In this document: positions 36,979 to 39,881 of the stretch, piece by piece
Layout of the letters: every line of letters begins with the position of its first letter
How positions within the stretch are numbered: position 1 is the stretch's first letter
Source: an uncultured Spirochaetales bacterium
Lineage (GTDB): Bacteria; Spirochaetota; Spirochaetia; Sphaerochaetales; Sphaerochaetaceae
Reading direction: 5' to 3'
Length of the DNA: 64,000 nucleotides
Assembly (NCBI GenBank): GCA_944388965.1
Contig: CALXKL010000001.1
Location: 62,001-126,000, forward strand
Position numbers and translations under genes: made by a program
Notes under the pieces: model-generated
The model's database searches: none
Told to the model about the DNA's origin: nothing
Seen by the model: the letters and a program-made list of their open reading frames with translations, nothing else

Positions 36979-38235
36979 ATGAAGGTGACCTTTCTCACGA
37001 TCTTCCCGGAATCGTTCGACAGCTTTCTGGACTACCCCGTCATAAGGAGGGCCGTAGGACGGGGCCTTGTGGATATCGAGGTCGTCGATGTCAGGGATTT
37101 CGCCTCCGGCTGCTTCAGGGCCGTAGACGACTCTCCGTATGGCGGAGGGGCGGGACTCCTTCTGCGCGTCGATACGCTATGCAGTGCATTGGCCTCTGTC
37201 GCCGGCACCTCGTCGAGGACCATTCTGCTTGGACCGAAGGGAAGACCGTTCTGCCAGCGTATGGCGCATGAGCTTGCACGGCAGGAGCACCTGATTCTCG
37301 TCGCCGGCCATTACGAAGGAGTGGACGAGCGCTTCCGCTCCCATATCGATGACGAGATCTCGATAGGCGACTACATACTTACAGGCGGAGAGAGTGCGGC
37401 CATCGTGGTGGCGGAAGCCGTCATCCGCCTCATGGATGGCGCCTTGCGTGATGCCTCCACAAAAGAGGAGAGCTTCGAGTCCGGACTGCTGGAATACCCG
37501 CAGTACACTCATCCGGCGGTCCATGAAGGCAGAGCTGTGCCGGACGTGCTTACGAGTGGTGACAGGAAGCGGATTGCACGTTTCAACGAGATGGAGGCCG
37601 TCCGGGATACGGCCAGGTCGAGACCCGATCTTCTTGCCCATGACAGGGAGTTGAAATTCTTCTTCCTCCACAGGGACGCAGGCGGCGAGGCTGAGGTCAT
37701 CCGCTGGCTGGATGGACGTCTGCCCGTTCCTGCAATAGTCTGGGAGGATGGAGGCTTCCTCCTGCTGGACAGGCTGAAGGGAAGAAGTCTGCGCACCACG
37801 GGACGAAGCCGGAAGCTGAAGACGTGTGCGGCCGTGTTGAGGATGCTCTGGTCGCTCGACGCATCGGACTGTCCGGTAAGGATGGACAACGTCAGCGTCT
37901 TCTCGCGTCTCAGGAAAAAGGAGATGTCATACGACCTCTGGTGTAGACTGCGGACGCTGGAGACGGTGGAACCGGAAGAGGACCTGGTGTTCTCTCATGG
38001 TTCTCTCACGCTGGACAGCATCATCGTGAACGGCAACGGTATTGTCGGTATGGTCGGCCTCCAGAAGGCTGGAGTCGCGGACCGCTACAGGGATCTTGCA
38101 TCGATTCTCTCATCCCTGGAAGAGGAGGGGGTCGAGGGGAGTGAGCTGATAGGGCTGCTTGGAATCGATGTAGACGAAGACAGGCTGGACTTCTTCAGAC
38201 AGCTGGGCAGACTGGACAGTGGTGCATCCGGCTGA
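36979..38235 (+). CDS. trmD: tRNA (guanine-N1)-methyltransferase TrmD fused to an APH(3')-like pseudokinase domain
   Basis: 418 residues; TrmD is usually about 240. Residues 1 to about 225 are a complete TrmD: MKVTFLTIFPE, DDSPYGGGAGLLLR, LLGPKGRPFCQ, LVAGHYEGVDERF, the trefoil-knot EISIGDYILTGGE and VPDVLTSGDRKRI. Residues about 228-418 match aminoglycoside 3'-phosphotransferase: IRWLDGRLPVPAIV, MLWSLDASDCPV, VFSHGSLTLDS and GVADRYRDLA. The kinase residues are gone: HGD reads HGS342, the metal Asn is Ser347, the DxG Asp is Gly360, and the N-lobe Lys aligns with His. TrmD makes m1G37 in tRNA to prevent frameshifting; the added domain's role is unknown. Confidence 0.88.
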   Translation: MKVTFLTIFPESFDSFLDYPVIRRAVGRGLVDIEVVDVRDFASGCFRAVDDSPYGGGAGLLLRVDTLCSALASVAGTSSRTILLGPKGRPFCQRMAHELARQEHLILVAGHYEGVDERFRSHIDDEISIGDYILTGGESAAIVVAEAVIRLMDGALRDASTKEESFESGLLEYPQYTHPAVHEGRAVPDVLTSGDRKRIARFNEMEAVRDTARSRPDLLAHDRELKFFFLHRDAGGEAEVIRWLDGRLPVPAIVWEDGGFLLLDRLKGRSLRTTGRSRKLKTCAAVLRMLWSLDASDCPVRMDNVSVFSRLRKKEMSYDLWCRLRTLETVEPEEDLVFSHGSLTLDSIIVNGNGIVGMVGLQKAGVADRYRDLASILSSLEEEGVEGSELIGLLGIDVDEDRLDFFRQLGRLDSGASG

Positions 38236-38962: not shown

Positions 38963-39261
38963 GCGGTGGTTTGGAAGATTGCTCTCCCTCCACAGAATCA
39001 GAGGCCACCGTCTCTTGTCTGCTGACGACTTTTGCACTCTACATGATGTTTCATTCTGATACCGCTCTCTAGCCTTATTTCCCACTGTCATCAGAAGGAT
39101 GATGTGACCATGTAAGGCGCGTTGCCAGAGTCTGTAATTCAGCGGCTCAATAGATACCTGAAGAATCTGGTTTTTCAATCTCAGCTCTGGTTTGGTTTAG
39201 CACAGGAAACGACTAGATAAAAATGTTTTTTATGATATATTTGTCAATGGAGGTATGGCGG
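38955..39261. other. Intergenic stretch between the type I-like toxin and higB
   Basis: Holds the toxin leader. On the minus strand, 39032-39001 contains GACGGTGGCCTC preceded by GTCGTCAGCAGAC, closely resembling the 5' hairpin of the antisense RNA on the other strand. A weak TAGAGT (39041-39036) could be a -10. No other gene is supported. Confidence 0.4.
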
Positions 39262-39612
39262 ATGTTCTCTCTGGAATTCTACGAGACAAAACAAGGAAAA
39301 TCTCCTGCAGAGGATTTCATCAGAGCAATGTCTGCAAAAGCAAAGGCCAAATTCTTCCAGATTGCAAATCTTCTGAAGGAACACGGCCCTGAAGTGAGGA
39401 TGCCATATTCCAGGTTCCTGGAAGATGGGATATTCGAAGTCAGAGTGATTGTCTGAAACGACTCTTCACTTGTGCTGTATTTCTTCATGGAAGGACAAAG
39501 GGTGATTTTCACAAACGGCTTTGTGAAGAAGACTCAGAAAACTCCAAGAAGGGAAATAGAGACAGCAATCAGATACAGAGCTGATTATCTCAAAAAGGAG
39601 AAGACGACATGA
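39262..39612 (+). pseudogene. higB: HigB/RelE-family toxin interrupted by an in-frame TGA
   Basis: Starts MFSLEFYETKQGKSPAEDFI behind GGAGG (39249-39253). Reading through the TGA at 39454-39456 (codon 65) gives FEVRVIV-stop-NDSSLVLYFFMEGQRVIF and GFVKKTQKTPRREIETA, an otherwise complete Gp49/HigB-type mRNA interferase of about 116 residues that ends in an ATGA overlap with the antitoxin. One base change explains the defect. The toxin should be inactive unless the stop is suppressed. Confidence 0.75.
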
Positions 39613-39881
39613 GCAGATATGACGAATTTTTCAATGAGATGATGAAGGATCCGGAAGTGAAAAGGGAATTTGATGCCCTTGAGCCGGAGTTCCAGCTCAT
39701 CAGAGAAATGATCAAGGCCAGACGTGAAGCTGGCCTGACACAGAAAGAGCTTGCTGAAAGGACGGGTCTTCAGCAGTCGAACATCAGCCGCATTGAGAAT
39801 GGAAACGGAAATCCCTCACTTGAGACATTGAACAAGATCGCACAAGGTCTGGGAAAGAAACTGGTCATCTCTTTCGCATGA
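39609..39881 (+). CDS. higA: HigA-type antitoxin, XRE family
   Basis: 90 residues. The C-terminal HTH is AGLTQKELAERTGLQQSNISRIE plus NGNPSLETLNKIAQGLG; the N-terminal MSRYDEFFNEMMKDPEVKREF is typical of HigA antitoxins paired with Gp49-like HigB. The start overlaps the toxin stop. In intact systems it neutralises HigB and represses the operon. Its partner carries a nonsense codon. Confidence 0.85.
   Translation: MSRYDEFFNEMMKDPEVKREFDALEPEFQLIREMIKARREAGLTQKELAERTGLQQSNISRIENGNGNPSLETLNKIAQGLGKKLVISFA

What the first reader, a model, noticed from the sequence alone, without database searches (positions are those of the whole stretch)
36979..38235. TrmD fused to a catalytically dead APH(3')-like kinase domain
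The essential m1G37 methyltransferase carries about 190 extra C-terminal residues that follow the APH(3') motif order (WLDGRLPVP, LDASDCPV, HGS, GVADRYRDLA). The kinase Asp, metal Asn, DxG Asp and N-lobe Lys are all replaced (Ser342, Ser347, Gly360, His). An aminoglycoside- or nucleotide-binding fold tied to a tRNA enzyme could bind tRNA, sense a small molecule, or scaffold something. I know of no described TrmD-APH fusion.
Basis: partly seen in the sequence, partly recalled or inferred. Interest (0 to 1): 0.9.

Follow-up and report, generated by a model that had tools for sequence, protein, structure and literature searches.

The report
Second TrmD fused to dead kinase
Some gut spirochaetes carry a spare, horizontally acquired copy of the tRNA-methylating enzyme TrmD joined to a former antibiotic-inactivating kinase; relatives keep the kinase motifs intact, while in this genome the kinase is dead but is still preserved by selection, so it has probably been given a new structural job.

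Summary
The fusion is real. Window 36979-38235 encodes 418 aa: TrmD (1-219) followed by an APH(3')-type aminoglycoside kinase domain (about 226-413) that has lost the catalytic Asp, the nucleotide-loop strands and the aminoglycoside pocket. The same architecture occurs in 18 of 139 genomes of its family (gut Sphaerochaetaceae and kin), so it is not a sequencing error.

Two things change the reading. First, this is not the essential TrmD: a canonical trmD sits in the ffh-rpsP-rimM-trmD-rplS operon of the same genome. The fused copy is a paralogue ("TrmD2") that groups with TrmDs of gut Bacillota, probably acquired laterally. Second, there is a decay series. In one genus (g8) the fused kinase keeps all catalytic motifs, and one member passes the curated NCBIfam cut-offs for both TrmD and APH(3'). 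In two other genera, including this one, the catalytic Asp is gone in 11 of 11, yet the domain is under purifying selection and predicted to fold well.

Methyltransfer residues are kept. The D-stem-contacting His201 is lost in all 18 fusions and kept in 92 of 96 other TrmDs. Best reading: an accessory tRNA m1G37 methyltransferase whose kinase module was repurposed as a structural or recognition domain. No published description was found.

The parts
36979..38235 (+). Whole gene: TrmD2-APH fusion protein, 418 aa plus stop
   Evidence: homologous fusions
36979..37635 (+). TrmD2 part, residues 1-219: knotted SPOUT domain, interdomain linker and C-terminal domain. Kept: Asp50, Gly59, Arg150 (Hi Arg154), Glu164 (Hi Asp169), Ser165, Phe166 (Hi Phe171)
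   Evidence: TIGR00088 2.8e-73; residue table; roles from PMC5372744
37558..37569 (+). Residues 194-197 (G-D-R-K), D-stem-binding loop; the second His of Ser-Gly-His-His (His201) is Arg196 here
   Evidence: contact described in PMC5372744
37636..38232 (+). APH(3')-like pseudokinase module, residues 220-418 (fold match about 210-413); lacks N-lobe strands 1-2, aminoglycoside-binding loop and C-terminal substrate residues
   Evidence: PF01636 and NF033068, PDB sequence match, fold match Z 22
37996..38019 (+). Former catalytic loop HGSLTLDS (residues 340-347): Asp190 position is Ser342, Asn195 position is Ser347
38056..38058 (+). Gly360 at the metal-binding Asp208 position

Best explanation
The gene encodes an accessory tRNA (guanine37-N1)-methyltransferase isoenzyme, TrmD2, that the family acquired from a gut Bacillota-type lineage and keeps beside its housekeeping TrmD. 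In one ancestor the 3' end of trmD2 was joined to an APH(3') gene, deleting the last TrmD helix and about the first 20 residues of the kinase. The kinase stayed intact in genus g8 and was then stripped of catalysis in the lineage of this window. Mechanism proposed: the SPOUT domains dimerise, bind SAM and methylate G37 of G36-G37 tRNAs; the pseudokinase does no chemistry but packs on the C-terminal domain, replaces the lost helix and substitutes for the lost D-stem contact (His201), thereby positioning or selecting the tRNA. Shown: fusion, paralogy, conservation of methyltransfer residues, kinase death, purifying selection, fold. Inferred: that it is active on tRNA G37, and the structural or recognition role of the module.
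For: Paralogue plus canonical operon copy in the same genome; 18 fusions in three genera and about 13 unfused TrmD2 in 139 genomes, and no genome at least 90% complete lacking the second, canonical copy was seen. TrmD tree: TrmD2 of Sphaerochaetaceae joins TrmDs of Bacillota, away from canonical spirochaete TrmDs (26-row clade, SH-aLRT 97). APH tree: all 17 fused APH domains form one clade against 14 stand-alone ones (99/99), so a single fusion. Methyltransfer residues kept, His201 lost in 17/17 plus truncated G159, His in 92/96 others. Purifying selection on both halves: APH half pN 0.04-0.07 against pS 0.18-0.25, Fisher p 1e-6 to 5e-9. APH part predicted with high confidence. In three species a methylthioadenosine/SAH nucleosidase gene lies 41-50 bp upstream on the same strand, as expected beside a SAM-using enzyme.
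Against: No activity data. The loss of His201 is essentially one evolutionary event in the fused clade, and a few unfused TrmDs also lack it, so the link to the module is a correlation. The module is acidic or neutral in most members, not the charge expected of an RNA-binding domain. Relative placement of the two domains in the model is uncertain (pTM 0.57). Support for the fused TrmD halves as one clade is modest (80/52).
Confidence: 0.5

Rival explanations
1. Protein-interaction or regulatory module: the pseudokinase docks another protein (ribosome, canonical TrmD, a synthetase) or senses a ligand and switches TrmD2 on or off.
For: Dead kinase domains often act as scaffolds (general knowledge). 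New positions became invariant in the dead clade (Tyr318, Trp321, Asn351-Gly352-Asn353-Gly354, Gln362), not explained by the old kinase chemistry.
Against: Both old ligand sites are degraded, so a kept aminoglycoside or ATP sensor is unlikely. No partner gene is conserved next to the fusion across the three genera.
Confidence: 0.25
2. Bifunctional resistance protein, at least ancestrally: TrmD2 and APH(3') were both selected under antibiotic pressure, the g8 forms still inactivate aminoglycosides, and the window's copy is a descendant that lost that half.
For: G156 keeps HGD-N, DxG, Lys and passes the curated APH(3') cut-off (216.8 against 205 bits), with the complete kinase fold (Z 26.5, 246 of 260 residues). 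TrmD2 is sporadic and laterally spread.
Against: Four g8 members lack the aminoglycoside-binding insert and the C-terminus although catalytic motifs stay. No natural TrmD-targeting antibiotic is known to me. In the window's clade the kinase is dead.
Confidence: 0.25
3. Substrate shift: TrmD2-APH no longer modifies tRNA G37 but another RNA or a small molecule, using the altered C-terminal domain.
For: D-stem loop and Trp-Arg helix signature are changed in the dead clade (SGDR..FN), Arg52 and Arg183 positions differ too.
Against: G36- and G37-recognising residues (Asp50, Gly59, Arg154 and Asp169 equivalents) and Phe171 remain; Ser at 52 and His at 183 are common in unfused Bacillota TrmDs as well.
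Confidence: 0.15
4. Neutral remnant: a decaying read-through tail without a role.
For: Catalysis and substrate pockets were lost stepwise.
Against: Frame open in all 11 species of the dead clade, purifying selection with p about 1e-6 or less, high predicted fold confidence, invariant positions of its own.
Confidence: 0.05
5. Sequencing or assembly error that joins two genes.
For: The genome is a multi-contig assembly.
Against: Same junction in 18 genomes of three genera from independent assemblies.
Confidence: 0.01

Closest known systems
TrmD, tRNA (guanine37-N1)-methyltransferase (PF01746, TIGR00088)
   Same: Full SPOUT and C-terminal domain, methyltransfer residues, curated model passed
   Different: A second, laterally acquired copy; His201 of the D-stem loop replaced; last helix deleted; C-terminal APH module added
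APH(3') aminoglycoside O-phosphotransferases, type IIIa (PDB 1j7i, 1j7l)
   Same: Sequence (3e-14) and fold (Z 22) of the C-lobe and part of the N-lobe
   Different: Window copy lacks catalytic Asp, Lys strand, P-loop strands, aminoglycoside loop and C-terminal substrate residues; below the family cut-off. The g8 relatives keep the catalytic motifs
TrmD-Tm1570 natural fusion (Calditerrivibrio nitroreducens, PDB 8b1n; PMC11187310)
   Same: TrmD with a C-terminal extra domain; there the TrmD half carries the tRNA activity
   Different: Partner is a second SPOUT methyltransferase, not a kinase fold; not a paralogue-decay series
AAC(6')-Ie-APH(2'')-Ia, a bifunctional aminoglycoside-modifying enzyme (from general knowledge)
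   Same: Natural fusion of an enzyme to an aminoglycoside kinase
   Different: There both halves modify the drug; here the partner is a tRNA enzyme and the kinase is dead

Membership tests
TrmD (tRNA m1G37 methyltransferase) | Score above curated TIGR00088 / NF000648 cut-off | tested here: met
   246 against 195 bits and 259.5 against 220 bits
TrmD (tRNA m1G37 methyltransferase) | Catalytic and G36/G37-binding residues: Asp50, Gly59, Arg154, Asp/Glu169, Ser170, Phe171 | tested here: met
   Glu at 169 also in canonical spirochaete TrmDs
TrmD (tRNA m1G37 methyltransferase) | Ser-Gly-His/Asp-His D-stem contact loop (His201) | tested here: not met
   SGDR here; non-His in all 18 fusions
TrmD (tRNA m1G37 methyltransferase) | Housekeeping copy in the rpsP-rimM-trmD-rplS operon | tested here: not met
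   That copy is at G000:C15:19468-20130
TrmD (tRNA m1G37 methyltransferase) | m1G37 activity | not testable with these tools
   needs biochemistry
APH(3') aminoglycoside phosphotransferase | Homology and fold | tested here: met
   PF01636 above cut-off; Z 22 to 1j7l
APH(3') aminoglycoside phosphotransferase | Curated NCBIfam APH_3p cut-off (205 bits) | tested here: not met
   94 bits; the g8 relative G156 passes with 216.8
APH(3') aminoglycoside phosphotransferase | Brenner motif HxDxxxxN and DxG (Asp190, Asn195, Asp208), Lys44 | tested here: not met
   Ser342, Ser347, Gly360; Lys strand not kept; roles in PMC3691515
APH(3') aminoglycoside phosphotransferase | Aminoglycoside-binding loop (Glu157, Glu160) and C-terminal Glu262/Phe264 | tested here: not met
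   Loop deleted and C-terminus changed in the alignment

The most novel reading that the evidence does not exclude
A natural class of bifunctional proteins exists in gut spirochaetes: a laterally spread second tRNA m1G37 methyltransferase fused to an active aminoglycoside kinase in one genus and, in others, to a pseudokinase that has taken over tRNA D-arm recognition from the TrmD C-terminal domain, giving a directly readable series from resistance enzyme to RNA-enzyme subdomain.
Probability: 0.25. Interest if true: 0.8.

Novelty: new variant of a known kind. Interest (0 to 1): 0.6.

Why it matters
If the reading holds, it is a living record of a resistance kinase being turned into a non-catalytic part of a translation enzyme, with both start and end points still present in sister genera. 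It also shows that TrmD, treated as a single-copy essential drug target, has an accessory second copy that moves between gut phyla; a second copy with altered residues could matter for TrmD inhibitors (the latter is inference).

Tried and rejected
A whole-protein scan of genome contigs with a single sequence found nothing; an alignment query did. Viral contigs, phages and plasmids gave no TrmD-APH fusion, only ordinary TrmD. Treponemataceae APH(3') genes are stand-alone or joined to a P-loop-kinase-like domain, not to TrmD. 248 genomes of the Oscillospiraceae relative's family gave TrmD2 in two and no fusion. Neighbour genes show no conserved partner across genera. Net charge did not support an RNA-binding module. 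Papers on TrmD-APH fusions or TrmD paralogues: none found; the library lacks most subscription journals.

Full report
Observation. The ORF at 36979-38235 (+) is open over 418 codons and carries TrmD followed by an APH-like domain. TrmD passes its curated cut-offs. The second half matches Pfam APH above the cut-off and APH(3')-IIIa structures by sequence at 3e-14, but stays far below the curated APH(3') cut-off. The catalytic Asp190, metal Asn195 and Asp208 positions hold Ser342, Ser347 and Gly360; the first N-lobe strands and the aminoglycoside-binding loop are deleted (roles in PMC3691515). AlphaFold2 predicts the module with pLDDT about 85-97, and it superposes on APH(3')-IIIa with Z 22, 2.8 A, 203 residues.

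It is not the essential copy. The same genome has a second trmD at G000:C15:19468-20130 inside ffh-rpsP-KH-rimM-trmD-rplS. Among 139 genomes of the family, fused copies occur in 18 (6 in g1, 5 in g16, 7 in g8; two of the g8 ones are cut by contig ends) and unfused second copies in about 13 (g1, g16, g9, g19); I saw no genome of at least 90% completeness in which the paralogue replaced the canonical gene. Named assemblies with the fusion are uncultured gut Spirochaetales/Sphaerochaetaceae, including Candidatus Aphodenecus pullistercoris.

Origin. In a tree of 84 TrmDs the paralogues of Sphaerochaetaceae form a clade with second copies of Solobacterium, an Oscillospiraceae bacterium and Pseudoramibacter porci (97), next to Erysipelotrichaceae TrmDs and far from canonical spirochaete TrmDs. 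Those Bacillota also hold a further trmD. This fits lateral spread of an accessory TrmD among gut bacteria (inference). All 17 fused APH domains form one clade against 14 stand-alone APH(3') of the same family and of Treponemataceae-like relatives (99/99); the fused TrmD halves also come out together, with modest support (80/52). One fusion event is the simplest reading.

Decay series. G022 and G156 (g8) keep the complete kinase: HGD, Asn, DxG and Lys; G156 scores 216.8 against the APH(3') cut-off of 205 and 264 against the TrmD cut-off of 195, and its model covers 246 of 260 residues of APH(3')-IIIa. G151, G157, G158 and G160 keep the catalytic motifs but lack the insert that binds the drug and the C-terminus. 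In g1 and g16 the catalytic Asp is replaced in 11 of 11 (Ser, Ala, Lys, Asn or Arg) and the first N-lobe strands are gone. Which state is older is inferred from the intact stand-alone outgroup.

Selection. For close pairs of the dead clade the APH half has pN 0.04-0.07 against pS 0.18-0.25 (Fisher p 1e-6 to 5e-9), the TrmD half 0.03-0.05 against 0.18-0.24; omega by NG86/YN00 is 0.14-0.40 for the APH half. The dead domain is therefore maintained, though less tightly than TrmD.

Mechanism. Residues for G36/G37 recognition and methyltransfer are present (PMC5372744). The D-stem loop Ser-Gly-His/Asp-His has lost its second His in all fusions (17 of 17, plus G159, which that script counted as unfused because its contig ends early), against 92 of 96 unfused TrmDs with His. 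The module starts exactly where the last TrmD helix used to be, and the fold alignment begins inside the preceding TrmD helix (model 210). I therefore favour a structural or tRNA-positioning role, at about 50%. A protein-docking role and an ancestral resistance role are the main rivals. Against an RNA-binding role stands the acidic or neutral charge of most modules. A SAH/methylthioadenosine nucleosidase gene 41-50 bp upstream in three species fits a working SAM enzyme.

Novelty. TrmD-Tm1570 is the one described TrmD fusion I found (PMC11187310). No TrmD-kinase fusion was found in the paper library. I rate it a new variant of a known kind: known domains, new architecture and an unusual evolutionary series; function untested.

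Noticed in passing
L113:5503-6711 (Pseudoramibacter porci RF-744-FAT-4): A TrmD2-clade paralogue with about 170 extra C-terminal residues, probably a winged-helix domain (MarR 0.02, SgrR_N 0.017; weak), in a genome that also has another trmD.
   Followed up: partly
L143:5494-6819 (Clostridia bacterium RGIG7033): TrmD with about 210 extra C-terminal residues without any Pfam match; this is the only trmD found in that genome, and its D-stem loop also lacks His201 (Gly-Asn-Gln).
   Followed up: partly
L097:3845-6929 and L101 (Solobacterium): Two trmD genes about 1 kb apart: canonical, then a DUF4299-like gene, a TrmD2 gene and a 2-phosphosulfolactate phosphatase-like gene with 4-base overlaps, suggesting one operon.
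   Followed up: partly
L074:7275-14633 (G006): Unfused TrmD2 is followed 33 bases on by DUF3375, a small protein, an SMC-like ATPase and a fourth gene, an arrangement like a Wadjet defence system (by order and size only, not tested).
   Followed up: no
L016-L020, L022 (unfused Sphaerochaetaceae TrmD2): Phe171, reported essential in TrmD, is His in all six tabulated unfused copies but Phe in the fused ones, so the unfused copies may be the less ordinary enzymes.
   Followed up: partly
L161, L162, L163 (f24, probably Treponemataceae): APH(3') fused behind a P-loop kinase-like domain in one 438-455 codon frame, another APH(3') fusion.
   Followed up: no
window 39223-39456 and 39609-39881: A HigB/RelE-like and an HTH protein in tandem, looking like a toxin-antitoxin pair about 1 kb downstream of the fusion; judged by eye only.
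   Followed up: no
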